Below are positions 927 to 16,806 of a stretch of 16,806 bases of DNA, one piece after another. Below the pieces are notes generated by a model. That model made no database searches. It had not been told where the DNA came from and saw only the letters and a list, made by a program, of their open reading frames with translations. This DNA comes from Limisphaerales bacterium (GTDB lineage: Bacteria; Verrucomicrobiota; Verrucomicrobiae; Limisphaerales; UBA11358), in NCBI GenBank assembly GCA_003152145.1, contig PLZL01000123.1, positions 1 to 16,806 on the forward strand, given 5' to 3'. The translations under genes were made by a program, and so were the position numbers. Every line of letters begins with the position of its first letter. Position 1 is the first letter of the stretch.

Positions 927-3035
927 ATGGCAAAGCGAAAGACTGGTTGCTTGTCACGGCACTGGCTGGGAAACGTCCGGGTGGTTTGTTTGACGTCTGC
1001 GCTGATGGTGGTGCTTTGTCCGGGAAATGTTCTCCGCGCGGCTGATATTGTCCTTTCCAATTCCCCGTCCTCAAACGCGACCGCGGCTTCGCTGGAATAT
1101 CAGGAAACGGACTACAACATCGTCAATTTGGGCGTTCCCCAGACGACGCAAACCACTCCTTTCAAAAATGAGCCGGAAGCGGCTTCGGGGAAGATCTTTC
1201 GCGGCGTTTTGAATTTCGGAGGCGATTCCAGCAATTCCATCGCCTTTGTCTGGCAGCGCGACGCGGGAAAACTTTTTCTCGACCTGAATCGCAACCAGAA
1301 TTTCACCAATAACCCCGCCGGCATATTTTCGACCCGTGTGGCGAAGCCGGTTAATTACCAGACATTCACAAACGTCCATCTGTTTTTCAATACCGCTTCC
1401 GGCAGGTGCCGGGTGCTGGCGGACATCAATTTCTATGACTACGGTTCACGGGCCAATTGCACGCTCGCAGTGCGCTCGTTCTGGCAGGGCAAACTGATGT
1501 TGCAAGGGCGGGACTGGCAGGCGGGCATCGTCCAAAATGACTTGAAACAATCGGGTTCGTTCGAGAACGGCCGGTTGCTGCTGCGTCCCTGGGAAAAACG
1601 AAACCAGCCATTCAACACTTCCAGTGGTTCGCTCGCCACCATTCCCTTTTCGCGGAAACTTTTTGTTTACGGCCACGCCTATCAACTGGACTTGGTGGCC
1701 AAAGCGCAGAACGGCGAAGCCAGGCCCGCGCTCCGATTCACGGAACAATCCGTTCCGCTGGGCGAATTGAAAATCACCGGCAAATTTGTTCAGCGGCTTG
1801 TCCTGTCGGGCGGATCCTATCTCACGGTTCTCGATCAACCGGCAGCCAGCGTCAAAGTCCCGACCGGCAGCTACAACCAGCCGGACATCCTGCTGGAACA
1901 AAATGGCGCCGAGGCCTACTGCAATTCCGGCCAGTCGCAAATTGGCGGGCGGATTTCCGTGGACGCCAGGACACCGGCGGTTTTGGACGTGGGCGGGCCG
2001 TTGACCAATTCCGTCATCGCCAGCCGCCACGGGCAGGATTTGCGTCTGGATTACCGGTTGATCGGCGCCGGCGGCGCGACTTATCAACTGGCGAATCAAG
2101 ATCGCTCCAAGCCGCCGGAGTTTGCCATTTACAGGGGCGACAAAAAAATTGCGTCCGGCAAATTTGAGTTTGGTTGAGGCGGCACCTGTTCGCACTCATG
2201 GCGAGTGCCTCTCACCGCGGGCGGCAAACTGACCATCGTGGCTTCGTCCGACCTCGGCGCGCTGGGTTCCCGCGACGGTTCTCCGGTTGCCTACAACTGG
2301 GTGCTGCCCGGCATTGCGCCGCTGCTGCTGCCGTGGCTGGTGATTCTGGGATTGCTCGCCTTGAAACCCAACCGGCGCGCGGCGGCGTGGCTGATCTGGC
2401 TGCCGCTCGGATGCGTGATGGCGTTCACCCTGGCGCCGCTGCCAATCCTGCCGGAGGGAACAAACTTTTTCCTGGATGCCATCGCCGCGCTGGCGGTTGG
2501 GCTGGCCGCAGTCTGGCTCCTGACAAGTTATCTGCGACAGCAACATCGCCTGCTCACTTTTCTGTGTGTCCTGTTCACTCTGGCGGGCTTCAGCGCGCTG
2601 GCGGCGGTGGCAAAACAAGGCGTGAGCTTGCTGACTGTCGAATCACTTCAAATCGGCATCGTGCTGGCAGTTGGTGTTCTGACCAGTGCGGCGGCGTTGA
2701 GTCTTGGCGGACTGATTTGTCGTGGCCGCTACCGTCCGTCCGGACTTTATTTGTGGCTGCTTGTCTTGGTGTCCGGGGTCTGGCTGGCGGTCACCCTGCC
2801 GTTCTTTTCATTTGCGGTGTTGGTTTCCGACGGGAACATTTCGTGGAATTCGTGGAGCGAGTTTTTCTTTCCCGTCTTGGCGGTGGCGACGGCCAATTAC
2901 GCAACGTTGCTGCCGTTCCTGATCCTGTCGTCGGCCAACCCGTTATTCCGCGAACGACTCAAGGCGTTGCTGCATGTGAAACCGGAAGCGCCGCCTGTGA
3001 TCGCGCCTTTGCCAGATGCCAGCTTGAATACTTGA
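927..3035 (+). CDS. Selenoprotein 1: exported U-GG-T-C protein with 7-helix membrane tail (TGA 2175-2177 read as Sec)
   Basis: Not a family I recognise. Read through the TGA, the gene gives 702 residues with Sec at 417. Residues 1-39 form a signal peptide (hydrophobic VVCLTSALMVVL core, then LRAA). Residues 40-416 look like an extracytoplasmic beta-rich region with an acidic EF-hand-like stretch (LFLDLNRNQNF). Next come FEFG-U417-GGT-C421-SHSWR, then seven hydrophobic helices at about 458-680. Reasons for recoding rather than a stop: the downstream reading frame is the same and stays open for 286 codons, the paralogue at 3067 has the same FEFG-TGA-GGxCSxSWR arrangement, a SECIS-like hairpin follows, and selB, selC and selD are in the window. 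ATG 927 is preferred over TTG 903, which lies upstream of the likely transcription start. The stop at 3033 is 31 bp before the next gene. UxxxC suggests a selenenylsulfide redox pair; the substrate is unknown. Confidence 0.85.
2192..2208 (+). promoter_or_regulatory. SECIS-like hairpin, selenoprotein 1
   Basis: Stem GCACTC (2192-2197) pairs perfectly with GAGTGC (2203-2208) around loop ATGGC (2198-2202). The loop starts exactly 20 nt after the TGA at 2175-2177. The hairpin lies within the coding sequence, and its loop falls on the Ser-Trp-Arg codons. It would position SelB-bound Sec-tRNA at the UGA. Loop, stem length and spacing match the hairpins at 4221 and 8347. Confidence 0.85.
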
Positions 3036-3066
3036 ACCCGATGGACAAAAAACCAACCGCAACATT

Positions 3067-4338
3067 ATGAAACTTAAATTGATTCTGGCCGGAATGGTTC
3101 TCGCCGGCCCCGCGTTCGCGCAATCCGAGCAATGGCTGGAATACCACACCAGCGCCGATGGCCGCGCCTACCACCAGGTGGAGTTGACCACCAATCCGCC
3201 GCCCGGCGTCGCCCTGCCCAAGTTGAACGCGTTGCCCTATTTCGCGCGCTGGCTTACACCGATGGACCCCGCCGGCGGGCGCTGGCTCTGCTTCGACCGA
3301 ACACGCAAGTCCGGGCCGTATGACCGCCTGTTCGTGGACAGCAACGGCAACGGCCGGTTAGACGACGAATCGCCCGTCCGGGCGCGGCTGGATTCCAATA
3401 GCGCCTATTTTCCGCCGGCCCCCGTTGTTTTCAAGGGTGAGGACGGGCCGATTACCTATCATCTCGTGTTCCGGTTCTATCAATACGAAAACAATGCCGC
3501 GCAACTGCTGGTATCGTCCGCCGGCTGGTATGAAGGCGTGGTGAATTTCGACGGCGCGAAAAAGCGCATCCATCTGATTGACGGCAACGTCAACGGCACG
3601 TTCAACGACATTGCGCCCGATCCCTATGACAGCGACCGCATCCAAGTCGAGGGCGACAAGACGGACGAGCGGTTTCTGGGCAAGATGCTGGAAGTGGACG
3701 GAAAGTTTTTCCGGGTTGAAGCTGCCCGCGACGGCGCGTTCGTCAAGGTGCAAAAGGCGGAGAACGTCACGCCCGGCCAGGTGCGCGTGCCGGAAAATAT
3801 TTCCGAATTTGCCGCGTTCGGCGGGAACGGCCATTTCGTGCGCAAACCGGTGAACGGCGAATTCACCCTGCCGGCAGGCAATTACCGGATTTTCCACTGG
3901 ACGATCAACCAAAAGGATGCAAAAGGCACGGCGTGGACGTTGTCCGGCTACAGTTTCCCCAAAACCGCCAGCTTCGAGGTCGCCGCCGACAAGCCCGCCG
4001 TGCTGGAAATCGGCGAGCCGGTGCAAGCCGTGCTCGCGGCGACGGAGAACACCAACCGCCAGGTCGCCTTCAGCCTCCGCTTCGAGGGCCGGCAAAAAGA
4101 ATCCATCGAGATGCTGCGCGAAGGCCAGCGTCCGGGCGGGCCAAAGTTGATGCTGGCCAATGCCGCCGGGACGTTGTGTTACACCAACACGTTCGAGTTT
4201 GGGTGAGGCGGCGTTTGTTCGCTCTCATGGCGGGAGCCAAAAAATGTTCAGCGTCCGTTGGTTGGCAGCGTCAAAATTGTCAGCCCGTTCCAGGTGCTGG
4301 CGGGTCCGTTGACGCTTGAGGCCAAAAAAACAGAATGA
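3067..4338 (+). CDS. Selenoprotein 2: secreted U-GG-V-C paralogue without membrane tail (TGA 4204-4206 read as Sec)
   Basis: A paralogue of the preceding protein with no recognised family. It has 423 residues when TGA 4204-4206 is read as Sec380. The signal peptide MKLKLILAGMVLAGPAFA is followed by Q19 (AFA cleavage site). Acidic EF-hand-like loops occur at LFVDSNGNGRLDDE and DGNVNGTFND. Similarity to selenoprotein 1 runs through the C-terminal half (compare KPAVLEIGEPV with TPAVLDVGGPL) into FEFG-U380-GGV-C384-SLSWR. After Sec it continues only 43 residues (GSVKIVSPFQVLAGPLTLEA, then KKTE) to TGA 4336-4338 and has no transmembrane segments. The start is ATG 3067, 31 bp after the upstream stop. 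The lipoprotein ATG follows 7 bp after its end, so co-transcription is likely. If the TGA were a stop, the protein would end just before its only UxxxC pair. Confidence 0.85.
4221..4237 (+). promoter_or_regulatory. SECIS-like hairpin, selenoprotein 2
   Basis: Stem GCTCTC (4221-4226) pairs with GGGAGC (4232-4237), including one T-G pair, around loop ATGGC (4227-4231). The loop begins 20 nt after TGA 4204-4206. Compared with the hairpin at 2192, the third pair is T-A instead of A-T. This compensatory change also alters the encoded residues (His to Leu, Val to Glu), so the pairing itself seems to be selected. Confidence 0.85.
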
Positions 4339-4345
4339 TCATCGT

Positions 4346-7300
4346 ATGAAAATGACACGGCAAGTCCTTCTGGTCTCTGCCGTTTCTGTGCTCATGGGCG
4401 CCTGCTCGCGCACCCAGACACCGGAACCGCCACAGACCGTCATTCAGCAAGCGCCGGACGCTGGCATGAACGTCAGCGCGCAAAGACTCAACTGTTCCGG
4501 GACGGTCACCGACACCGCCGGCAATCCACTGGCCGGCGCAACGGTGGAGTATTGGTGTTACGAGGGGCGGTTGAACAATCTGGTATTGAATAAACAAATT
4601 ACCACGGGAACCAACGGCGCTTTTGACTTCCAATCGTCGCGGGCGTCTGGATTCCTGCTGGCGCGAAAACCGGGACTGGGCCCGGCTTGGAAACAGTTGA
4701 ACCAGTCGTTCAATTCCGTTCGAGACGGGCAACAATATTTGGTGCTGACTCCGCAGGCAGCTCTGGCGGGCGTGGTGGTGGACGAGGCGGACAAACCTGT
4801 CGCCAACGCCGGGGTTTCCGTGGTGGTGGCCGTCTGCGAAATTTCGAGGGAGGATGGAGGGCGAAGTTTTAACTATTTTGCCGGCAAACCCGCGCACGAT
4901 TATTTTGCCGCCCGCACCGACGCCGCCGGCCATTTCCGCATCGAAAGTTTTCCGACCAATGCCACGGCTGCTCTCGCGGTTCAGTCGCCGGGAAAAGCTC
5001 TGCGCCAATCACCGTCGGATTCCGGCGGCTTGGACTCGCTGCCCTGGCGCGCGGGCCAGGACGACATCAAATTGGTCATGGAACCCGCCGGCAACATCGA
5101 AGGCAAAATAGTCGCTGACGAAACCAATCAGCCGCCGCCGGTTGCGCGGTTGACATTGCAGTCGGACAACCCGGGCTTTTCTCGTTTCTCAGGAAGCGAG
5201 CCGGCACAATCGGGGGCTGACGGCGCGTTCCACATTAGCGACGTGGCCGCCGGTTCCTATGCAATTCATGCCATCTTCGGCACCAATGCCGTTCCGGAAT
5301 GGATTGCGGACGCGGTTCCAGTTTCGGTTGAGTCCGGACAGATCACGCGCGGCGTCCAGGTAACCGCGATGCGCGGCGGTTTGCTGGAAGTGGCCGTGCT
5401 GGGACAAAATGATCGCAAACCGCTAACGCAAATCACGGTCAACGCCTACAAGGATAATTTTCAATCCAACGCCCGCTCCGACACCAATGGCATCGCCCGC
5501 CTGCGGCTGCAGCCCGGGGATTACCAGATTACGGCGTCCGGTGAGTCCATGGCAGCGAACCAGACTTCCGCCAGCGTGGAAGCCGGCAAGACAAACCGCG
5601 CGGAGATCGAAATCGCCACGCCGAAAAAAATCACCGGCATCGTTCGCCAGCCGGACGGCCAGCCGGCGGTGGGACTGCCGGTGAAATTGATCGGCAGCTT
5701 CGGCCCGAATGTAGCTGATGTCAAAACCGATGCCGGCGGCAGATTTGAATTGGAATGGATCCAGCGCCAAATCAGCCAAATCGACACGACTCCTTGCATT
5801 CTGGTTCGGGACGTGGAGCACAATTTGGCCGTGGCGCAGGACATTGACGAAGACACCGGCCCACTCGATCTGAAACTCGCGCCGGGACTCACGCTGGCTG
5901 GCCGCGCGGAATGCGACGGCAAACCCATTACAAATGCCACCGCTTCGCTGGTCTTCTGGACAGGTCGCAGCGGCAGGTGGCTCAATGGCTTGGCGCGGAC
6001 CAACACGCCGGGACAATTTGATATTCCAGCGCTGCCACCCGGCAGAAAATACGGCGTAGCTGTCTCCGCGCCGGGATACGGGCGGAAGCAAATTTACGAT
6101 GTCGGCGCCTCCGCCGATGCCACCCGTCAGGAACTCGATCCCGTGGAACTCCAGCCCGCCAATCTTCCGCTTGCCGGCCAGGTGCTTGACGCGGACGACA
6201 AGCCGGTCGCCGGTTGTTACGTGAATCTTAACGGCGAGGGACAGCCCAGTGCCAATGTGCGCACGGATCGCGAAGGACGATTCCGTTTCGAGCATGTCTG
6301 CGAAGGCGCGGCGCAACTCTCGGCCAACAGTCAGAGATCGTTTGGCAACGTTTCGGCGGAAGGCGGCGACACGAACGTCGTGCTGCGGCTCGGCCAAACT
6401 TACAATAATTCTTCCGGTGCCACGGCGCACAAATTGAAAGGCACGGTGACGGATGCTGATGGCAAACCCGCCGCCGGAGCGCAGGTGGCGGTTTTCCCCA
6501 ACAACGGCACGCGCTGGGTCAAGGCCGGGATCAACGGCGCGTTCAGCCTCACTTGGTCGCTCCAGTCGTGGCAACAGCAGTCCGGCGGCGCGCTGCTGGT
6601 CGTCCGCGACACCGTTCATAACCTGGCGGGCACTGAAGAATTAGAGGAGGAAACCACGAATATGGACGTGAAATTGAAAACGGCGCTGACCTTGATCGGG
6701 CGTGTGCAAGACCCGAACGGTTCTCCGCTCGTTGGTGCGCAGGTTGACGTGCAACTCAAGGCGGGCAACAGCTACGACCGGTTGAACGAACAAATGGCCA
6801 CCGCCGACGCGCGAGGCCGTTACGAAATCAAGTGCCTGCCGCCGGACGCGCAATACATCGTTTTCGCCACCGCCAAAGGCCACGGTCGAAGCCAGCAGCA
6901 AGCTCAAGGCGACTCCGAAACCAACCGCATGGATCTCGATCCGTTTGTGCTGAAGCTCGCCGACCGTGTTTTGGCCGGGCAGGTGCTGAACGAAAATGAC
7001 AAGCCGGTTTCCGGCGTGAACGTGTCGTTGAATGGCGAAGACCAGCCGGACGGTTACATGACCACTGACAGCAAGGGCCGGTTTCACTTTCAGGTTTGCG
7101 AGGGACAGGTTCGCCTTTTCGCCAGTTCCCAAGGTGGTTCTGCACAGGCCACCGCAGAGGCGGGCGACACCAACATCGTGATAACATTGAGTTCCCAGCC
7201 AGGGAATTCCCGCCAGACGCCAAGTCGTGCTCCGCTCAAAGGCAGCCCGCTGCCTGATTTGACGACCGTGAATCTCACCGCCGATACCGCGCCTGCCGGA

Positions 7301-7639
7301 AAGCCGGTGCTGTTGTGCCTGTTCGATGCGGGCCAGCGTCCGTCGCGACATGTCATTAATCAACTGGAGCAGCAGGCCGCCGCGCTCCGGCTGCAAAATG
7401 TTTCCGTGCTGGGCGTTCAAGCCGCAGTTGCCAGCGATGACGTTTTCAATGAATGGAAAAGCGCCAGTCCGGTTTCCTTTCCCGTCGGGCGCGTGACGGA
7501 GAAATCCGAAAAATCAAAATGGGCCACGGCGGTTCCCGCGTTGCCGTGGCTGATTCTCACCGATGCCGATCACCGGGTCATCGCGGAAGGTTTTGCGCTC
7601 GACGAGTTGGACGCACAGATCAAAAAACTGGCGAAGTGA
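4346..7639 (+). CDS. Large lipoprotein with repeated CarboxypepD_reg/Ig-like domains and cysteine-less thioredoxin-like C-terminus
   Basis: 1097 residues from ATG 4346. The TTG at 4316 lies inside the upstream gene and would spoil the signal. The N-terminus has a lipoprotein-like signal (VLLVSAVSVLMGAC, lipidation at about C19). The body holds about ten beta-sandwich repeats of the carboxypeptidase regulatory-like type, each opening with G-x-V-x-D-x-x-x-x-P-V/L-x-G-A-x-V (for example SGTVTDTAGNPLAGATV and AGQVLDADDKPVAG). A three-domain unit of about 260 residues is duplicated (about 426-685 and 694-950): both halves have LVRDxxHNLA, LTLxGR, AGQVL, VCEG and GDTN at matching places. The last ~130 residues resemble a thioredoxin/TlpA fold (GSPLPDL, KPVLLCLFD, then a cis-Pro-like ALPWLIL), but the CxxC position reads AGQRPSRH. 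It is the third gene of the selenoprotein operon. A surface scaffold or adhesion/binding role is inferred only from domain type. Confidence 0.85.
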   Translation: MKMTRQVLLVSAVSVLMGACSRTQTPEPPQTVIQQAPDAGMNVSAQRLNCSGTVTDTAGNPLAGATVEYWCYEGRLNNLVLNKQITTGTNGAFDFQSSRASGFLLARKPGLGPAWKQLNQSFNSVRDGQQYLVLTPQAALAGVVVDEADKPVANAGVSVVVAVCEISREDGGRSFNYFAGKPAHDYFAARTDAAGHFRIESFPTNATAALAVQSPGKALRQSPSDSGGLDSLPWRAGQDDIKLVMEPAGNIEGKIVADETNQPPPVARLTLQSDNPGFSRFSGSEPAQSGADGAFHISDVAAGSYAIHAIFGTNAVPEWIADAVPVSVESGQITRGVQVTAMRGGLLEVAVLGQNDRKPLTQITVNAYKDNFQSNARSDTNGIARLRLQPGDYQITASGESMAANQTSASVEAGKTNRAEIEIATPKKITGIVRQPDGQPAVGLPVKLIGSFGPNVADVKTDAGGRFELEWIQRQISQIDTTPCILVRDVEHNLAVAQDIDEDTGPLDLKLAPGLTLAGRAECDGKPITNATASLVFWTGRSGRWLNGLARTNTPGQFDIPALPPGRKYGVAVSAPGYGRKQIYDVGASADATRQELDPVELQPANLPLAGQVLDADDKPVAGCYVNLNGEGQPSANVRTDREGRFRFEHVCEGAAQLSANSQRSFGNVSAEGGDTNVVLRLGQTYNNSSGATAHKLKGTVTDADGKPAAGAQVAVFPNNGTRWVKAGINGAFSLTWSLQSWQQQSGGALLVVRDTVHNLAGTEELEEETTNMDVKLKTALTLIGRVQDPNGSPLVGAQVDVQLKAGNSYDRLNEQMATADARGRYEIKCLPPDAQYIVFATAKGHGRSQQQAQGDSETNRMDLDPFVLKLADRVLAGQVLNENDKPVSGVNVSLNGEDQPDGYMTTDSKGRFHFQVCEGQVRLFASSQGGSAQATAEAGDTNIVITLSSQPGNSRQTPSRAPLKGSPLPDLTTVNLTADTAPAGKPVLLCLFDAGQRPSRHVINQLEQQAAALRLQNVSVLGVQAAVASDDVFNEWKSASPVSFPVGRVTEKSEKSKWATAVPALPWLILTDADHRVIAEGFALDELDAQIKKLAK

Positions 7640-7769: not shown

Positions 7770-7866
7770 GGAGGTGTGGGGCGACCTGGTGGCGCTCCTG
7801 GTCTTCAAAACCAGCGTGGGGCTCAACAAAGTCCCAGGTGGGTTCGATTCCCATCCACCTCCGCCA
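7770..7866 (+). tRNA. selC: tRNA-Sec (anticodon TCA)
   Basis: A 97-nt tRNA with encoded CCA and discriminator G7863, which inserts Sec at UGA. The acceptor strand GGAGGTG (7770-7776) pairs with CACCTCC (7856-7862). The eighth position is T7777 opposite C7855, so the molecule is either 8/5 with one mismatch or 7/6 if G7837 pairs with C7855. The D stem is long for a tRNA, GGGGCG/CGCTCC (7778-7783 with 7793-7798), although C7798 is shared with the anticodon stem. The anticodon stem CTGGT/ACCAG holds loop CTTCAAA with TCA at 7805-7807. The variable arm has a 7-bp stem (7817-7823 with 7830-7836) and loop CAACAA. TCA anticodon, long variable arm, extended D stem and length distinguish it from tRNA-Ser. 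It lies directly between the selenoprotein operon and the small selenoprotein gene. Confidence 0.96.
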
Positions 7867-7969: not shown

Positions 7970-8341
7970 ATGAAACGCGTGCCACAACCGCCGGTCAATC
8001 CCGCCTTGCGCAACGTGGAGCGCCACGATTTCTGGCCCGGCTTCGTTGCGGTGGTCGCCGGTGTTGTCCTGGCATTTTGCGGCGTGCGCCATCTGACCGG
8101 CATGGACACCGTCACGGGGAACACCGCCTCGGAGATTCAGTTGGTCAAGGCGTTTTCCTCCGGCGGTCTGCAATTCGCGGATCAACTCGCGCCGCCACCG
8201 CCGCCAAACTTGGCGGATGCGGCCGCGGAAGCCGAAGCGCTGGATCGCTGGGCCAAACAACAGGCGAACGCGACTCCTCCCACTTGGAAAGTCCGGGTGG
8301 ACACCGCTGCAGCAACACCCTGTCCGACCTGACTAAAATAA
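7970..8341 (+). CDS. Selenoprotein 3: small one-helix membrane protein ending in C-P-T-U-L-K (TGA 8330-8332 read as Sec)
   Basis: No family recognised. With TGA 8330-8332 read as Sec the product is 123 residues ending ...TPCPT-U121-L-K, with stop TAA 8339-8341. If the TGA is a stop, it is 120 residues. Residues 1-21 are basic and proline-containing, about 22-42 form one transmembrane helix (FVAVVAGVVLAFCGV), and the rest is polar with a PPPPP stretch and an Ala-rich helix. The positive-inside rule places the C-terminus outside the cytoplasm. The Sec reading rests on a hairpin 14 nt after the TGA whose loop (ATGGC), stem length and spacing equal those of the other two selenoprotein genes, and on the CxxU pair it creates. 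This hairpin lies beyond the stop codon, so coding constraint cannot explain its conservation. The gene is followed closely by a NapH-like gene, so partnership is likely. The coding region itself is well supported; the Sec reading is somewhat less certain than for the other two. Confidence 0.75.
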
Positions 8342-9532: not shown

Positions 9533-10168
9533 TTACCACCTTTTCAAATCATTCTGTAAAGCGCCAAAGCCATGAGGAAATAAAATTTCCAAATTTTTAA
9601 GATTTGCCGCAAGACGTAAAGCTGCGGTTTTCATCGCTTCGGTCTCAACAGCAAGTGATGGGTGAGACGTTCCATAAAGTTCATTTTTCAGGCTCGGTCT
9701 GGTGTATGGCTGCTGGCCTGCTTTCATTCCATTGATCCAGGCCGCTTCGGTAATATGAGGATTAACGCCGCTCAGAAGCCATGCTTCAATTGTTGGCACA
9801 GCCAAGCCTAAAGCGATTTTTAGGGGAGTTTGATGCTGTCGTGGCTGGACTTGTTGCAGCACTTCATCTGCAATTCGACGCAGTTGGCAGAGACGGCACA
9901 ATGGATCACGTGCGTTTGGTGGCTCATGCGAAGCCAGATGCGGCGGAGTGCCGTTTGCATCTACGATAAACACGAACCCTGCTGCGTCGGAATGATAGTG
10001 CAATTCCCTGAGAACAGGGCGTAAGGAAATTCTGACAGTGGGCCAACCGCTACGATTTCGCAGTCCTTTGTAATCAACTGATTGAGTTTTTTTACCGAGG
10101 ATTGCTTCGGTCAGAATAGTCAGCGCAGCCTGGTCCGCCCGAGATTCTGCGAAATAGGCGACTTTCAT
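9533..10168 (-). CDS. TOPRIM-like (DUF4276-type) partner of the adjacent ATPase
   Basis: 211 residues. The start ATG 10168 overlaps the ATPase stop (shared ATGA), so translation is coupled. The N-terminus has YFAESRADQAALTILTEAIL (acidic E8), a middle strand reads FIVDANG (D near residue 70), and the ALGLAVPTIEAWLLSG segment is typical of small TOPRIM-like proteins that accompany OLD/SMC-type ATPases. Such pairs are known from anti-phage systems, where the TOPRIM protein is often the nuclease effector. Assignment to DUF4276 is from motif memory only. It has lower GC than the selenoprotein block, suggesting acquisition. Confidence 0.65.
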   Translation of the reverse strand: MKVAYFAESRADQAALTILTEAILGKKTQSVDYKGLRNRSGWPTVRISLRPVLRELHYHSDAAGFVFIVDANGTPPHLASHEPPNARDPLCRLCQLRRIADEVLQQVQPRQHQTPLKIALGLAVPTIEAWLLSGVNPHITEAAWINGMKAGQQPYTRPSLKNELYGTSHPSLAVETEAMKTAALRLAANLKNLEILFPHGFGALQNDLKRW

Positions 10169-11175
10169 GTTCCAGCCGGCACACCGCCGAGAACACCACT
10201 ATACCAGACTTCGCTTAACGGAGCGTCGCCGAGAATTTCCTCCAAATCGGTTCGATCGGAAAGACGCGAGAATTTAGATTCCAAACCCGCCTTTTCGGCA
10301 ATGACGATTTCATCCGGATGTTGCCGGAAAAGGTCGAGTAAATATGGGTTGTGCGTCGTGGCGACAACTTGAACAGGACTGCGTTTGTCCTGAGAGCCTT
10401 CGGGATAGGCCAAACGGTAAAGGGCATCACGCAAATCACGAAGCAGGCGAGGATGTAACCCACGGTCCGGTTCTTCGAGGCAGATTATGGACGGTGGATC
10501 AGGCAGGAATGCAATGGTAAGCAGTGCAAGTGCAATGAGCGTGCCTTGGGAAAGGGTGTTGGCCCTGATGATGTGATTGCCTTCACGGGTGCGGAGTGCG
10601 ATAGAACGTTGTCCCATACTTGGAGTCTCAAACAAGATTTGGTTGAATTCTGGAATCCAATGTCCCAATTGGTCGTTTAATGCTTCAAAACGCTCTGGGT
10701 TTTTATCGCGAAGCCGGTCCAGCACGCCGGGCAAACCAGCACCATTAGGCGCTAATTCCATGTCAGGCAAAAGCTGAATTGGCGCAGCGATTGCAGTCGC
10801 ATCTAGCGAGTAAATTTTAGCCCTGCTCAGCGCCTTACGAGGTTGTTCAAGTTTCTCAGTTGTTAACTGGATTGGTGGGATTGGTCTGAAAGATGGCCCG
10901 CCAAAGCTGTTGTCGCTCTGCCAAGTGACTTGAACGAGGATTTTATTCTCTTCCTCTCGCCACATGGCTGAAAGCGTGGTTTTGTTCAGAGCTGGCACAC
11001 CTACGCTGCGGCATTGCAAAAATTGGGCCTGGCCTGGTTGGCGAAGAGCAGAAAAAGCGTTAAGCGCGGTGCTCTTTCCGCTTCCGTTTGGGCCGACGAT
11101 AAGTGTAAAAGGACTGAGGGGCAGCGTTGTGTCACGCAGCGTTTTGAAATTCTCGAATTTAATTGACTCAAACAT
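10165..11175 (-). CDS. AAA/ABC-type ATPase of the OLD/SMC-like class (defence-type)
   Basis: 336 residues from ATG 11175. Walker A is at residues 28-36 (GPNGSGKST), preceded by the family-typical start FESIKFENFKTLRDTTLPL. An ABC-signature-like LSQGT follows in the second half. Walker B is SIICLEEPDRGLHPRL, and the H-loop lies in VVATTHNPYLLDLF. This is the compact chromosomal AAA_21-type ATPase arrangement (no long coiled coil) that pairs with a small TOPRIM-like protein. The downstream gene overlaps by 4 bp, so the two form one unit. A defence role is inferred from architecture and from the neighbouring restriction-type nuclease. Confidence 0.85.
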   Translation of the reverse strand: MFESIKFENFKTLRDTTLPLSPFTLIVGPNGSGKSTALNAFSALRQPGQAQFLQCRSVGVPALNKTTLSAMWREEENKILVQVTWQSDNSFGGPSFRPIPPIQLTTEKLEQPRKALSRAKIYSLDATAIAAPIQLLPDMELAPNGAGLPGVLDRLRDKNPERFEALNDQLGHWIPEFNQILFETPSMGQRSIALRTREGNHIIRANTLSQGTLIALALLTIAFLPDPPSIICLEEPDRGLHPRLLRDLRDALYRLAYPEGSQDKRSPVQVVATTHNPYLLDLFRQHPDEIVIAEKAGLESKFSRLSDRTDLEEILGDAPLSEVWYSGVLGGVPAGT

Positions 11176-11306
11176 AAAGACCGCTTAACAGGCGCAGTTT
11201 AACTGTCAGCGCGTCTCGAATCCAGCACTTTGCGCGATATTTTTCTTGCGCCTGAATTCTCGACATCCGGCTTGCTAGAGCGCAAAATGTGAACGATTTA
11301 ATTGCA

Positions 11307-13109
11307 ATGAACACGCGCTCACAAAAATACGCAGTTAATCAATATCACGTTGAGGTCGTCCTTGCTTGGGTTTTGTCGGGCGAGATCGCCATTCCGGAAA
11401 TCCAGCGGCCATTTGTTTGGGATGCAACCAAGGTGCGCGATTTGATGGACTCGCTTTATCAAGGTTTTCCAATTGGCTACCTGATTGCATGGAAAAATCC
11501 TAATGTCCGATTGAAAGACGGCACGCTTTCGGAAGGGAAAAAGATTTTGATAGACGGTCAGCAACGTGTGACAGCACTGACCGCTGCGATTCTGGGTCAA
11601 CAAGTCGTGGATCAAGAATATCGTCGTATCCGAATTAAAATTGCGTTCAATCCGATTAAAGAACAATTTGAAGTTCAGAATCCGGCCATCTTAAAGGACT
11701 CAAGTTGGCTGCCGGACATCGCCGAAATTTTTGAAAGTGATTTGGACATCTTCCGCCTCGTTGGAAATTACTGCGCGAAAAATCCGAACATTAGCCAGCA
11801 AGACGTGTTCAGCCGTGTTCAAAGTGTTCAGCAAATCAAGGGCAAGCAAATAGGGCTGATTGAACTCGATGCTGATTTGGACATTGAAACCGTCACAGAG
11901 ATCTTTATCCGCATCAACTCGAAGGGTGTCGTTCTGAGCCAAGCGGACTTTGCGATGTCTAAAATCGCCGCCAATCAAATTTACAACGGTGCTCACCTCC
12001 GAAAGTGTATTGACTATTTTTGTCATTTGGCGATTGCGCCGCAATTTTTCGAGCAATTGCGTGAACGTGATCCCGACTTTGCGGCTACGCCTGAATTTCA
12101 AAAAATGGCCTGGTTACGCAATGAAAATGATGATCTCTATGACCCCGATTATACCGATGTGTTGCGCGTAGCCTTCACGTCGGAATTTGAGCGCGGACGG
12201 TTGACCGACTTGGTTAGCCTGCTCTCTGGCCGCAATTTTGAAACAAAATCGTTTGATGAGACGATTGCCGAACAATCGTTCGCTCAATTGCGTGCTGGCG
12301 TGGAAAACTTCGGCAACGAGACCAACTTCAAACGGTTTGTAATGATTGTCCGTTCGGCTGGATTTGTGGATGCGAGTCTCCTCCGGTCGAAGAACGTGGT
12401 AAATTTTGCTTACATCCTTTTTCTCAAGCTGCGCAAGCTTGGTGCTTCTGCGGAAAAAATCGAGAGCGCCGTTCGCCGGTGGTTTGTGATGAGCATTGTC
12501 ACCGGGCGTTACAGCGGTTCTCCCGAATCGTCATTTGATTTCGACATTAAACAAATTGCTGCCCGCGGAATTGATGCAGTGTTGCAAGATCGTGAAGAAG
12601 CCGACCTGTCCGAAGCCTTCTGGTCGGCATCACTTGTTCAGGCTCTCAACACGTCCGTAGCAAGCAACCCAATCTTTCTTGTTTTTCTCGCGGCACAAAT
12701 TCGAGCCGGGGACAAAGGCTTCCTGTCGAAAGACATTTCCGTGCATGATTTGGTCACGCACAAGGGAGACATTCATCACATCTTCCCAAAGGAATATCTG
12801 AAAAAGAACGGACTGTCGAAGGGCGACTATAATCAGATTGCGAACTACGTCTATATGCAGTCGGAAATCAACATCCGCATCGGCAGCAGGTCTCCAAAGG
12901 AATATCTGGCGGACGTGAAGAAACAATGCAGCGGAGGAAATTTGAAATTTGGGCGTATTGATTCAGTGGAAAATTTGCTCGCGAACTTTAGGATGAACGC
13001 CATTCCCGAATCTGTTTTCGATATGGAACTGGCCGAGTATGAAAGCTTTCTCGCCCAGCGGCGTCGGCTGATGGCCATCAAGATTCGCGATTATTACTTA
13101 TCGTTGTAA
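11307..13109 (+). CDS. GmrSD-type (DUF262 + DUF1524) nuclease
   Basis: 600 residues from ATG 11307; GTG 11289 in the same frame is an alternative. N-terminal DUF262 signatures: GEIAIPEIQRPFVWD (about 25-39), GFPIGYLIAWK, and ILIDGQQRVTAL (about 80-91), the ParB-like DGQQR motif. The C-terminal DUF1524 HNH-type motif is DIHHIFPKEYL (about residues 487-497), followed by the NYVYMQSEINIRIG segment common to the family. GmrSD-like proteins cleave modified phage DNA in an NTP-dependent way. Here both halves are in one chain. The gene is divergent from the ATPase pair, and the 131-bp space between them probably carries both promoters, though I see no convincing hexamers. Codon use is AT-richer than in the selenoprotein block. 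Confidence 0.88.
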   Translation: MNTRSQKYAVNQYHVEVVLAWVLSGEIAIPEIQRPFVWDATKVRDLMDSLYQGFPIGYLIAWKNPNVRLKDGTLSEGKKILIDGQQRVTALTAAILGQQVVDQEYRRIRIKIAFNPIKEQFEVQNPAILKDSSWLPDIAEIFESDLDIFRLVGNYCAKNPNISQQDVFSRVQSVQQIKGKQIGLIELDADLDIETVTEIFIRINSKGVVLSQADFAMSKIAANQIYNGAHLRKCIDYFCHLAIAPQFFEQLRERDPDFAATPEFQKMAWLRNENDDLYDPDYTDVLRVAFTSEFERGRLTDLVSLLSGRNFETKSFDETIAEQSFAQLRAGVENFGNETNFKRFVMIVRSAGFVDASLLRSKNVVNFAYILFLKLRKLGASAEKIESAVRRWFVMSIVTGRYSGSPESSFDFDIKQIAARGIDAVLQDREEADLSEAFWSASLVQALNTSVASNPIFLVFLAAQIRAGDKGFLSKDISVHDLVTHKGDIHHIFPKEYLKKNGLSKGDYNQIANYVYMQSEINIRIGSRSPKEYLADVKKQCSGGNLKFGRIDSVENLLANFRMNAIPESVFDMELAEYESFLAQRRRLMAIKIRDYYLSL

Positions 13110-13221: not shown

Positions 13222-13273
13222 AAATGCTAAAGGCTGAAACACTTTGGCCATTAGCCTTCAGCCTTTAGCATTT
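13222..13273. repeat. Dispersed palindromic repeat, copy 2 (possible bidirectional terminator)
   Basis: AAATGCTAAAGGCTGAA (13222-13238) and its perfect complement (13257-13273) enclose an 18-nt spacer. The arm is 16/17 identical to that of copy 1 at 7873. It lies between the convergent DUF262 and selD genes and supplies the last codons and stop of selD (K-M-L-K-A-E-G, then TAA). An A-run precedes and a T-run follows, so it may end transcription from both sides. Confidence 0.75.
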
Positions 13274-14888
13274 TTGCCGCGTTTTCTTGATAAAACATTT
13301 TCACCGGCGCGCCGCCCATCGCAATCGCGCACCACGCCGCCTCGTCCAATTCTGCTTGAGTGATGCCCAACTCGCGCGCCCGGCGAAAATGCGCGTCGAA
13401 GCACGCTTCACACCGGCTCTGGACCACCAGGCTGAAGAGAATCAATTCCTTGGCCTCTTCATTCAACGCGCCCGACGCCTGCGCCGCGCGCATCATGGCA
13501 CCGAAAGCCCTCTGTGTTTCGCCGACAGAACTTGGCGCGGCTTGGTCGTTGAAGACATCCGCGCAGCAGCCTTCGTGGTGGGCGGGAGAATTTTTCGTTG
13601 GTGTTTTCATGGTATCAATTTCGTGTGGTTGAATGGCTGGATTTGATTTTGAAATTTCGACCGGCGAAAGAAAAATTTGTCCGGTGTCGTCGGCAACAAT
13701 TTTGCCGATGACAAAACTGCCCGCGCCGCGCCGGGTCAGGGATTGCCGCAGCATTTCCAGGCGCTCCGGCGGAACGGCGATCAGCAGTCCGCCGGACGTC
13801 TGCGCGTCGAAGCCCAGATCCACCGCCGCCTCATCCACGCCCGGCGCAATGTGGATGGCATCGCCGACATACTCGCGGTTGCGCTCAATCGCACCGGGAA
13901 TCACGCCCTGCCGCAAGGCGTCCAGCGCGCCGTCGAATGCCGGCAGCGTCTCCGCGAAAATTTCCGCGCCGAGCCGGGACGCCCGCAGCATCCGCAGCAG
14001 ATGCGCGAAGAGGCCGAAGCCCGTGATGTCCGTGCAGGCCGACGCGCCCGTCTCCTTCATCGCCTCTGCCGCGTTCTGGTTCAGTGCGGCCATGGAAACT
14101 TCCGCCACCGCCATTCCGGCCGGATAATCGCGCCCGATCTGCCGGCAAAACGCCAGCACACCCGTGCCGAGCGGCTTGGTGAGGACCAGCACGTCGCCGA
14201 CATTGGGTTTTTCAAGCGCGGCAGCAACCGCCGGATCAATCAATCCGGTGATGGCAAAACCCAGTTTTATTTCGTCGTCCTTGACGCTGTGACCGCCGAC
14301 GAGCGCGACGCCGGCCTGCTTGAAAATCTCCATCGCGCCGTCAAGCATTTGGAAAATAATTTCGCCCGGCAATTTTTCGGAGGGAAACGCCAGCACGCTC
14401 AACGCCGTGCGCGGTTCGCCGCCCATCGCATAAATGTCCGAGAGACAATTCGCCGCGCAGATTTTTCCAAAGAGCCGGGGATCATCCACGCACGGCGTGA
14501 ATACGTCCACCGTCTGCACCAGGCAAAGGTCGTCTGCGATCCGGTAAATCGCCGCGTCATCGGCGGCGGCCAGCCCGGAAATCACCGCCGGATCATCCAC
14601 CGCCGGCAGGCGTCCCAGCACCGCGTCCAGATCGGCGGGCGAAATTTTCGAGGCGCAGCCGGCGTTGCGGACGAGCTGCGTCAATTTCACCTGCGAAATA
14701 TCCACCGGCTCCGGGCGTTCCCCGGCGCACGGACAAATGTTCTGTTCGCGCAGCACGTCGCAAGGACAAGGCCGCCGCACGTCGCAGATGCAATGCCCCA
14801 GCAGCTTGGATCGCTCCATCACCCGGCGGCGTTTGGCTAAATCAATTTTCATTTTGTTATTTGTAGCAGCCGACGTGAGGAGGCTCAT
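13251..14888 (-). CDS. selD: Selenophosphate synthase with Cys-rich N-terminus, fused to AhpD-like domain
   Basis: 545 residues. SelD makes selenophosphate from selenide and ATP for Sec synthesis. The catalytic pair corresponds to C78 and K81 (NAGCASKIS); the second Cys of the E. coli GCGCK motif is Ser here. DDAAIYRI, VDVFTP, LSDIYAMGG, GGHSVKD and TDITGFGL are typical of the AIR-synthase-like fold. An N-terminal extension carries three CxC pairs (C33/C35, C41/C43, C52/C54), unusual for SelD and possibly metal- or selenium-binding. Residues about 428-545 are a carboxymuconolactone decarboxylase/AhpD-like domain with C493-E-A-C496 and H500. There is no stop between the domains, but an internal ATG at 13610 could allow separate translation. 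The start used is ATG 14888, with ATG 14852 possible. It lies 19 bp downstream of selB in the same direction. Confidence 0.92.
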   Translation of the reverse strand: MSLLTSAATNNKMKIDLAKRRRVMERSKLLGHCICDVRRPCPCDVLREQNICPCAGERPEPVDISQVKLTQLVRNAGCASKISPADLDAVLGRLPAVDDPAVISGLAAADDAAIYRIADDLCLVQTVDVFTPCVDDPRLFGKICAANCLSDIYAMGGEPRTALSVLAFPSEKLPGEIIFQMLDGAMEIFKQAGVALVGGHSVKDDEIKLGFAITGLIDPAVAAALEKPNVGDVLVLTKPLGTGVLAFCRQIGRDYPAGMAVAEVSMAALNQNAAEAMKETGASACTDITGFGLFAHLLRMLRASRLGAEIFAETLPAFDGALDALRQGVIPGAIERNREYVGDAIHIAPGVDEAAVDLGFDAQTSGGLLIAVPPERLEMLRQSLTRRGAGSFVIGKIVADDTGQIFLSPVEISKSNPAIQPHEIDTMKTPTKNSPAHHEGCCADVFNDQAAPSSVGETQRAFGAMMRAAQASGALNEEAKELILFSLVVQSRCEACFDAHFRRARELGITQAELDEAAWCAIAMGGAPVKMFYQENAAKMLKAEG

Positions 14889-14907: not shown

Positions 14908-16806
14908 TCAGAGCCTCGTTACCTCGGCTGCTGCGGGATTCAAAAGTTTCTTCGCCTCCACTCCCGGCGTGCGGTTGTTGCCGGAACGCACGGTGAAGCG
15001 GATTTTATCCAGGTGATCCACCAGCGGCACGGCGAACTTGCGACTGACGCCGAGCGCATCGCGGAACTCCATCGTGGAAAACGCCGGTGAGCGCCGGAAT
15101 AATTTAAGCGCGGTCTGCTTGCCGGCTTCCACGGCGTCGCGGTGCATCCAAATCCGATCATCCAACTTCACCACCACGCCGCGCTCGGCCAGCAGTTTTG
15201 CCATCGTGGTCACGCGCGGCAGCGGCTCATTCGCAGCCACCGCCAGTTCTTCCAAACCCGGTGGTGCCCAGCCGGCGTGCAGCAACTTCGCGGCGATCTG
15301 GTCACAGAGCTGCTGGTCACGGTCGGGAACCTGCGCATTCCAGCTGGCCCGCGCCAGCAAAGCGCCGTTACGTTCAAGCTGCTTCGACTGGAGCAACGAA
15401 TCCGCCGCCGCCTCCAGAATATCGGGATTGGCTTTGAGCGACGCCAACAATTCTTCGCGACCAATGCCGGCGCGTTGCGGGCTGACCGTGTGAAAAGTTT
15501 GAACGGCGGTGACAATGTTCTCCGCCAGCTTTTGAATGACTTCGCGATGAAGCCAGCCACCGCCTGTCGCCGCAACCACGCGGTTTTCCGCGCGCAGCTT
15601 TTCGAGTGCTGCGGTGATTTCCTCCGACTCGGCTCCAGCATTTTTTTTGAAGGTTGGCGACGGTGGCGGGCGATTCGCCTTCGCGCACCATCTGTTCACA
15701 CCAGCGCACCGGATCAGCGACTGCTTCGCGCCGGGCGGCGAGTAGATCAAGCGTCCACTGCTTTTTGCGGCGCAGGCGCGTATTGCTCAAACCGAGGATT
15801 TGTCCGCCGCCGATGGTCGTCAGCCCGCTGCCGGCTGCGTCGGTGATGTTGGCCCGCACCACAAACCGTTCACCGGGCACGAGTGACAGCGGTGTGGCAA
15901 GGCGAAGCTGCACAAATTGTTTTTGCCCGCCGGTCATCACCGTGTCTTCCAGCATCGCCAAATGCGCCGAAACCGAAGCCGTTCCGACATGAAATTGCAC
16001 TTCGAGGTAGTCTTCAATTTTGCCGGAAATAGATTTCAGGATATGCAATTCCGCCTCGGCCATCGTGACCGGCTCGAATGAATTTGATCCGCAGAGCACC
16101 GTGCCGCGCCGCACTTCTTCGTGGTCGAGTTCCGGAATGTTCAGCGCGACACATTCGCCGGCGTTTCCTTCCGTGGCGTCTTCGCCATAAACCTGCATCC
16201 GGCGGACATGTCCTGACAGGCTGGCGGGCAACAGATGAAGCTCGTCGCCGGGGTGAATCCGGCCATGCGTGGGAATGCCGGTGACAACAGTGCCCGCGCC
16301 GCGAATCGTGAACGCATCCTCCACCCACATCCGGAAATGCCCGGCGCATTCGTGGTCGCCGCAGGCGTTCACGACTTGATTCAGCGAATCGAAGAATCCG
16401 TCGAAGCCTTCGCCATTGATGTTGGAAATCGGACAAATGGGCGCGCCGGCCAGAAATGTTTCCGCCAGCAGCCAGCGCAAATCCTGGATCACAAAATCGC
16501 GCCGCGCGGCGTCCACGAGATCAATTTTCGTCAACGCTACCAGCCCGTGCCGCAAGCCCATCAGCGTGAGAATGTGCAAGTGTTCGTGCGTTTGCGGCAT
16601 GATGCCGTCGTCCGCCGCGACGACAAAAATGACCACGTCAATGCCATGCGCACCAGCAACCATGTTGCGGATGAAATCCACGTGGCCGGGCACGTCCACG
16701 ATGCCCACCACGCGCTTGTCGGCGAGCTGGCACGGCGCGAAGCCGAGATCAATGGTCAGGCCGCGCTGCTTTTCCTCGGCGAGCGTGTCGGTTTCGCAGC
16801 CGGTGA
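14908..16806 (-). CDS. selB: Selenocysteine-specific elongation factor (5' end cut by window; apparent frameshift at A8 tract)
   Basis: SelB is the EF-Tu-like GTPase that carries Sec-tRNA to UGA codons next to a SECIS hairpin. The visible part starts after the P-loop, with TGCETDTLAEEKQRGLTIDLG (switch I), DVPGH (G3), TKID (G4) and a SNINGEG segment (G5), then beta-barrel domains and a winged-helix C-terminus ending with GVSRKFAVPLVDHLDKI and R-SGNNRTPG, the mRNA-binding W4-like part. The frame changes at the A8 run (T8 at 15641-15648 on the plus strand): upstream ANLQKK must join downstream NAGAESEEI, a +1 shift. Without it, translation ends at 15374 and lacks the RNA-binding end. It heads the selB-selD unit. 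Identity is certain; the cause of the shift is not. Confidence 0.93.
15641..15648 (-). other. A8 homopolymer at the selB frame change
   Basis: On the minus strand, C followed by eight A and then TGC. Zero frame reads Q-K-K-C-W; the SelB-like continuation N-A-G-A-E needs one A fewer (or two more). This is compatible with a sequencing/assembly indel, a real mutation, or RNA-polymerase slippage. Confidence 0.8.

What the first reader, a model, noticed from the sequence alone, without database searches (positions are those of the whole stretch)
927..4338. A tandem pair of apparently undescribed selenoproteins with motif FEFG-U-GGxCSxSWR
Two neighbouring paralogous exported proteins both have an in-frame TGA at exactly the same place, between FEFG and GGxCSxSWR, with the frame open beyond it (286 codons in the first, 43 in the second). 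The U-G-G-x-C arrangement would form a UxxxC redox pair. selB, selC and selD are in the same window. I know no described selenoprotein family with this motif or with this N-terminal domain.
Basis: partly seen in the sequence, partly recalled or inferred. Interest (0 to 1): 0.95.

Follow-up and report, generated by a model that had tools for sequence, protein, structure and literature searches.

The report
Selenium proteins built on immunoglobulin folds
Two neighbouring bacterial genes each carry a UGA stop codon, very likely read as the rare amino acid selenocysteine, in probably exported proteins of a large family that none of the sources searched describes and that would use selenium for electron transfer outside the cell membrane.

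Summary
The finding holds and is larger than stated. Genes A (927-3035) and B (3067-4338) have in-frame TGAs at 2175-2177 and 4204-4206. Relatives carry TGA at the same place in 9 of 9 B loci and 5 of 5 A loci and stay homologous beyond it. Deposited relatives stop just before it (B 120 of 120 listed, A 119 of 120 listed). The TGA lies inside one predicted immunoglobulin-like domain; beyond it A has predicted membrane helices and some B relatives a Laminin-G domain. A 6-bp hairpin after the TGA is kept by compensatory changes. The window and sampled Planctomycetota and Verrucomicrobiota genomes gave 137 distinct TGA domains; among the loci read, two were clearly Cys-for-Sec. No Pfam, NCBIfam or catalogued family matched. 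selB, selC and selD are in the window, and an iron-sulfur membrane protein goes with the family (24 of 28 genomes, against 2 of 14 and 0 of 14). Selenocysteine decoding is near certain from sequence; export, redox function and electron donor are inferred.

The parts
927..3035 (+). Gene A: probably exported membrane protein with in-frame Sec codon (702 aa with U417)
   Evidence: TGA also in 5 of 5 A loci
2175..2177 (+). TGA predicted to be read as selenocysteine, U417 of A
2192..2208 (+). Hairpin after the TGA of A, predicted SECIS: GCACUC-AUGGC-GAGUGC
1998..2312 (+). Predicted Ig-like domain of A (residues 358-462) that contains U417
2295..2972 (+). Hydrophobic helices downstream of U417 (about seven predicted membrane helices, residues 457-682)
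   Evidence: AlphaFold2 model; hydropathy
3067..4338 (+). Gene B: probably exported protein with in-frame Sec codon (423 aa with U380)
   Evidence: TGA also in 9 of 9 B loci
4204..4206 (+). TGA predicted to be read as selenocysteine, U380 of B
4221..4237 (+). Hairpin after the TGA of B, predicted SECIS: GCUCUC-AUGGC-GGGAGC
4015..4335 (+). Predicted Ig/macroglobulin-like domain of B (residues 317-423) that contains U380
4346..7639 (+). Conserved neighbour: CarboxypepD_reg repeats ending in a thioredoxin-like stretch with QRPSR and no CxxC (thioredoxin-like is my reading)
7770..7862 (+). selC, tRNA-Sec, anticodon TCA
7970..8332 (+). Conserved small protein between selC and the FeS gene (120 aa)
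   Evidence: L002, L003, L004
8358..9263 (+). Membrane iron-sulfur protein, NapH/NosR-like; proposed electron donor
13251..14888 (-). selD fused to a CMD/AhpD-like domain
14908..16804 (-). selB, in two frames here (frameshift), cut by the window end

Best explanation
Two adjacent genes carry an in-frame UGA that is very likely read as selenocysteine, within a predicted immunoglobulin-like domain of probably exported proteins where it would act as a redox centre likely fed by a neighbouring membrane iron-sulfur protein. Steps, with what is shown and what is inferred. (1) Decoding (near certain, about 0.97; inferred from sequence): SelB, SelD and tRNA-Sec are encoded nearby, and a conserved hairpin follows the UGA. 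(2) Place (predicted): the U and the Cys four residues on lie between two late strands of an Ig-like sandwich. In A this domain leads straight into predicted membrane helices; in B it ends the protein, or in some relatives a Laminin-G tail follows. (3) Chemistry (inferred, about 0.7): the U is the reacting nucleophile, because it is the constant residue while its partner varies (Cys at +4, -1, +3 or +5, a second Sec, or none). In A and B it would form a selenenylsulfide with the Cys at +4. (4) Electron supply (inferred, about 0.45): the NapH/NosR-like polyferredoxin encoded beside selC reduces these domains from the membrane side. The substrate (peroxide, protein disulfide or metal(loid)) is unknown.
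For: TGA in 9 of 9 B loci and 5 of 5 A loci. Deposited relatives end just before it: 120 of the 120 listed (of 574) for B, 119 of the 120 listed (of 381) for A. In genome searches, with overlapping genome sets, one TGA lay inside 27 of 28, 8 of 8, 49 of 49 and 66 of 97 matches. Neither TAA nor TAG stood at the U site in the contexts read. Laminin-G follows the TGA in frame in the three relatives tested (E 1.2e-19, 4.7e-25, 4.1e-26); A's part after the TGA gives predicted membrane helices. Codon position 2 changes least after the TGA in 10 of 10 comparisons. Hairpin: 83 of 94 sequences have all 6 pairs, mean 5.75 against 3.56 for synonymous recoding, 0 of 500; 56 two-sided changes against 13.3 in shuffles, 0 of 500. 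A and B themselves end in TGA, so TGA still means stop here. tRNA-Sec of 64.9 bits or more in 67 of 76 genomes with the domain, against 16 of 60 without a first-round match. FeS gene in 24 of 28 genomes with the domain, 2 of 14 with tRNA-Sec but no TGA domain found, 0 of 14 with neither; in 18 of the 24 it lies within 4 kb of tRNA-Sec.
Against: No experiment shows selenium. The hairpin is atypical for the published bacterial SECIS model: only 28 of 94 have a G in the first two loop positions, and only 31 of 94 hairpins reach -7.5 kcal/mol. A generic folding-energy test against synonymous recoding shows no excess (mean z -0.22), and one of five covariation measures, pairs with a change on both sides, is not beyond shuffles (5 against 3.7, 59 of 500). 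31 of 97 planctomycete matches had no TGA in the aligned part; 9 of these have a U just beyond, one is Cys, and 21 show no U (one at an assembly gap), so the fold also exists without Sec. 18 of 137 TGA domains have no Cys at -1, +3, +4 or +5, against an obligate intramolecular pair. Codon order 2<1<3 fails in 2 of 10 comparisons after the TGA, both for the short tail of B. Nine of 76 genomes lack a strong tRNA-Sec (incomplete assemblies possible). Export is my reading; a 19-residue hydropathy scan finds no segment in B. The donor role rests on co-occurrence alone; the 14 genomes with neither are all of the Verrucomicrobiota sample, so kinship may play in. The neighbouring thioredoxin-like stretch lacks CxxC.
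Confidence: 0.65

Rival explanations
1. Selenoprotein, but the Sec (alone or with its Cys/Sec partner) binds metal or metalloid ions outside the cell rather than transferring electrons.
For: Adjacent CU, UC, UU and CC pairs occur in the planctomycete branch; the 2026 review lists CU motifs for HgcA and SaoL. Several paralogues per genome (up to 9) would fit a binding or surface role.
Against: Steady company of a polyferredoxin-like membrane protein (24 of 28); the partner varies while U stays, which fits a nucleophile better than a fixed ligand set.
Confidence: 0.2
2. Selenoprotein whose domain serves mainly as a structural surface module with a stable Se-S cross-link.
For: Best-scoring folds include S-layer, adhesin, macroglobulin and PorU C-terminal Ig-like domains; three B relatives tested carry Laminin-G tails; several paralogues per genome.
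Against: Sec is costly where a disulfide would do, and Cys replacements are very rare (two clear cases among the loci read); 18 of 137 TGA domains keep U without a Cys at the usual places.
Confidence: 0.12
3. The proteins stop at the UGA; what follows is a separately started small protein (a GTG at 2205 in A) or decayed 3' sequence.
For: The listed public gene calls stop there. A GTG start at 2205 is available in A.
Against: Conserved residues start right after the TGA, before that GTG. The stop would cut the predicted Ig-like domain and drop its last strands. The hairpin covaries. In L005-L009 the protein runs on for some 270 to 570 codons.
Confidence: 0.02
4. UGA is read as another amino acid (Trp, Cys or Gly) by a changed code or a suppressor tRNA.
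For: The site is read through in frame.
Against: A, B and the third gene end in TGA. tRNA-Sec with anticodon TCA is near the genes in the window and in 8 of 13 related loci scanned. A site-specific hairpin would not be needed.
Confidence: 0.01

Closest known systems
DsbD N-terminal domain (nDsbD)
   Same: Ig-fold redox domain in the periplasm, part of a protein with a membrane domain; active-site Cys C103 and C109 (passages of PMC7347389).
   Different: No Pfam match of A or B to any model; spacing UxxxC instead of C103/C109; Sec instead of Cys; A's model shows no C-terminal thioredoxin domain.
Catalogue of prokaryotic selenoproteins (119 families, PMC13188914 Table 1)
   Same: In-frame UGA, SelB/SelC/SelD, downstream hairpin, redox-type motif.
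   Different: No entry has FE[FY]GUGGxC; by motif the nearest is hypothetical protein DG (GUxG, NF049953), which is another family: the model is named ribbon_DG_selen, A and B do not hit it, and no match in 6 family genomes reached its cut-off.
Glycine reductase selenoprotein A (GrdA)
   Same: A Sec protein lacking Cys homologues, the one such case named in a passage of the deep-Sep paper.
   Different: CxxU motif; subunit of the glycine reductase enzyme; the present family has two clear Cys members.
CU-motif selenoproteins such as HgcA and SaoL
   Same: Adjacent Cys-Sec pair, as in the planctomycete CU branch.
   Different: No NCBIfam match of ten class representatives; Ig-like domain instead.
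NapH/NosR ferredoxin-type membrane proteins (the FeS neighbour)
   Same: Fer4_5 domains; E about 1e-12 to TIGR02163 and NF046105.
   Different: Far below both curated cut-offs (47.8 against 213; 45.9 against 1000).

Membership tests
Bacterial selenoprotein | In-frame UGA with coding conservation on both sides | tested here: met
Bacterial selenoprotein | Sec machinery (selB, selC, selD) in the genome | tested here: met
   All three in the window; selB shows a frameshift there; selA was not looked for
Bacterial selenoprotein | Hairpin just after the UGA under selection as RNA | tested here: met
   for the UxxxC class; not tested for the other classes
Bacterial selenoprotein | Strict bSECIS model of PMC13188914 Fig. 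2 (loop 3-9 nt, stem 4-16 bp, spacing 16-37 nt, G in first two loop positions, MFE <= -7.5) | tested here: inconclusive
   Loop 5 nt, stem 6 bp, spacing 20 nt are met; G rule in 28 of 94; energy rule in 31 of 94 (hairpin alone); in the window A -8.0, B -7.3, loop AUGGC in both, so the G rule is not met there
Bacterial selenoprotein | Cys homologues | tested here: inconclusive
   Very rare: L161 (S-C) and L213 (C-C); none in a protein search for the long architecture
Bacterial selenoprotein | Selenium in the protein | not testable with these tools
   needs 75Se labelling or mass spectrometry
DsbD family | Match to DsbD sequence models | tested here: not met
   Pfam and NCBIfam scans of A and B, none
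DsbD family | Ig-fold redox domain next to membrane helices | tested here: inconclusive
   Ig-like domain then helices predicted in A; DsbD is not among the rows shown, which does not exclude it; no redox data
Hypothetical protein DG (NF049953) | Score over the family cut-off of 130 bits | tested here: not met
   No hit of A or B; in 6 family genomes one match, 21.5 bits
Thioredoxin-fold selenoproteins | Thioredoxin fold around the Sec, with UxxC/CxxU | tested here: not met
   Predicted all-beta Ig-like Sec domain; UxxxC

The most novel reading that the evidence does not exclude
Planctomycetota and Verrucomicrobiota own an unrecognised selenium-based electron-transfer system outside the cell membrane: a superfamily of immunoglobulin-like domains whose selenocysteine is near-obligate (almost no Cys form), with a mobile partner (Cys at +4 or -1, twin Sec, or none), often encoded near selC and served by a dedicated membrane ferredoxin. 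Cys-based selenoprotein finders could not see it.
Probability: 0.5. Interest if true: 0.92.

Novelty: new variant of a known kind. Interest (0 to 1): 0.87.

Why it matters
[quoted passage not shown] the deep-Sep paper says that families lacking Cys homologues may be filtered out (passage). This family goes against all three: predicted Ig-like fold, almost no Cys form, atypical hairpin. It points to a class of selenoproteins that current pipelines truncate and miss, makes the question 'when can Sec not be replaced by Cys?' testable, and offers a new kind of redox-active Ig domain.

Tried and rejected

In one search the printed codon column is two positions too far right; I used the contexts and recounted. 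One search's 162 matches hold at least two doubled places. The 76 genomes are those with TGA domains known at that point less one left out by oversight (G876). The 60 were the first-listed non-matching genomes of three searches, not a random draw; two of them (G590, G603) later proved to bear the TGA domain, and without them it is 14 of 58. The 28 'with' genomes were my choice from the 76. Of the matches I read 30 loci and 20 fetched regions; Cys forms among the rest are not excluded.
Full report
Observation. Gene A (927-3035) and gene B (3067-4338) each have one in-frame TGA, at 2175-2177 and 4204-4206, after FEFG and before GGTCSHSWR or GGVCSLSWR. A stays open for 285 codons, B for 43. Both end in a further TGA. 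selC, selD and selB are in the window.

The codon is conserved. A scan of one genome for each of 84,980 species with B, which finds close relatives only, gave nine loci, all MAG records: six named as Verrucomicrobiota or orders within it, one unnamed bacterium, two of planctomycete orders. All nine carry TGA at the U column and go on matching beyond it. Gene A is found next to B in five of them, all five with TGA. Among predicted proteins the 120 listed of 574 B relatives all end in FEFG, and 119 of the 120 listed of 381 A relatives end in FEFG or a close variant; one ends a few residues earlier. So the listed members sit in databases in truncated form.

The family is large. With a 21-sequence domain alignment (A3), the genome search found it in 5 of 288 genomes of the phylum of G002 (Verrucomicrobiota by the locus title), 20 of 293 of its order and 67 of 294 of the phylum of G008 (Planctomycetota by the locus title). 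A second alignment for the CU branch (A7) matched 91 of 392 genomes of the latter phylum, including matches without TGA. In the first three, matches with exactly one TGA inside were 8 of 8, 49 of 49 and 66 of 97. Of the 31 without, 9 have a U just past the aligned part, one (L161) has Cys, and 21 show no U, one of them at an assembly gap. After removal of duplicates by the 60 bases from the TGA on, and of three artefacts (two in L123, one in L161), 137 distinct TGA domains remain, the window's two included.

The partner moves, the U stays. Of the 137, 94 have Cys at +4, 22 belong to the branch with FPGxCU, FTGCU or similar (19 of them with Cys at -1), 3 have Cys at +3 or +5, and 18 have none at these places. 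Further members have UU (L220, L221, L222) or UC (L223); L168 has UU as well. Cys for Sec is clear in L161 (S-C, an otherwise ordinary reading frame) and L213 (C-C). A search of 5.8 billion proteins with residues 160-440 of the L008 read-through protein, which admits only proteins of about 527 to 1,678 residues and so shuts out most truncated forms, took 4,011 candidates and found none at E <= 0.001. Cys forms of ordinary length among the 454 unlisted B hits cannot be excluded.

Hairpin. In the 94 UxxxC sequences six pairs can form between positions 18-23 and 29-34 counted from the T of TGA, that is, 14 bases after the TGA. 83 of 94 have all six; the mean is 5.75, against 3.56 (sd 0.11) when codons are replaced by synonymous ones from the same reading frame (0 of 500). 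On 52 of the 94 (50 after thinning at 88% identity, plus the window's two) 93.3% of cells pair against 73.1% in shuffles, 56 cells show changes on both sides against 13.3, and the covariation score is 0.544 against 0.151 (each 0 of 500; slid versions at most 0.171); pairs with any two-sided change, 5 against 3.7, are not beyond shuffles (59 of 500). Codons covary: CAC with GTG, TAC with GTA, CTC with GAG. The hairpin meets loop, stem and spacing rules of the published model but mostly not its G rule (28 of 94) or energy rule (31 of 94), which would help to explain why model-based scans missed it. A generic energy test was negative, and the fixed stem does not describe the other classes.

Company. 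In L002, L003 and L004 the order is A, B, CarboxypepD_reg repeat protein, selC, small protein, FeS protein (with some 4.6 kb between the repeat protein and selC in L003), followed by selD in L002 and L003 and by selB in L002. In the window about 4 kb of other genes lie between the FeS gene and selD. Four planctomycete loci (L123, L127, L129, L130) hold Sec-domain genes with selC, the FeS protein and selD or selB. A tRNA-Sec of at least 64.9 bits is in 67 of 76 genomes with TGA domains and in 16 of 60 first-listed genomes without a match; tRNA-Ser-like matches reach about 59 bits, so the cut is mine. The FeS protein is in 24 of 28 genomes with the domain (my choice from the 76), 2 of 14 with tRNA-Sec but no TGA domain found and 0 of 14 with neither, the last all from the Verrucomicrobiota sample; in 18 of the 24 it lies within 4 kb of tRNA-Sec.

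Mechanism. Decoding as Sec is near certain from sequence. Export is my reading of the N-termini; no predictor was run, and hydropathy found no 19-residue segment in B. That the U is a redox nucleophile is inferred from its constancy against a variable partner. That the FeS protein is the donor is inferred from co-occurrence. The arrangement of A (Ig-like domain, then membrane helices) recalls DsbD, whose N-terminal Ig-fold domain holds C103 and C109 (PMC7347389, passages), but no sequence test supports membership.

Novelty. Outside the Laminin-G tails no Pfam or NCBIfam model matches A, B or ten class representatives above its cut-off. Table 1 of PMC13188914 (read whole; of that paper I also read sections 5 and 8 and passages) has no such motif; hypothetical protein DG, the nearest by motif, is another family. 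Of PMC12013277 and PMC4807772 I saw passages only. Sources not readable are named under Tried and rejected.

Noticed in passing
window 14908-16804 (-): selB is split over two frames, while in L002 both parts lie in one frame: a frameshift or an assembly error in this window.
   Followed up: partly
window 13251-14888 (-): selD is fused to a C-terminal CMD/AhpD-like domain; the match also spans both parts in L002, L123 and L127.
   Followed up: partly
window 4346-7639 (+): CarboxypepD_reg repeat protein ends in a thioredoxin-like stretch with conserved QRPSR (QRSSR in L003) instead of CxxC, also in planctomycete L127.
   Followed up: partly
L220, L221, L222, L168: Twin adjacent TGA codons (UU) at the motif; L223 has U then C.
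   Followed up: partly
L093, L100, L135, L137, L144, L145, L147, L159, L167, L178 and others: Large planctomycete proteins share the first part of the domain alignment but show no U or motif: perhaps a non-Sec branch of the fold.
   Followed up: no
G005 (L104-L107, L110, L117, L121, L035): One genome holds nine matches of the Sec domain, each with one TGA.
   Followed up: partly
window 10165-13109: An AAA_21 ATPase gene (-) with a small neighbour at 9533-10168 (-) and a GmrSD_N gene at 11289 (+) lie between the selenium genes, perhaps a defence island.
   Followed up: no
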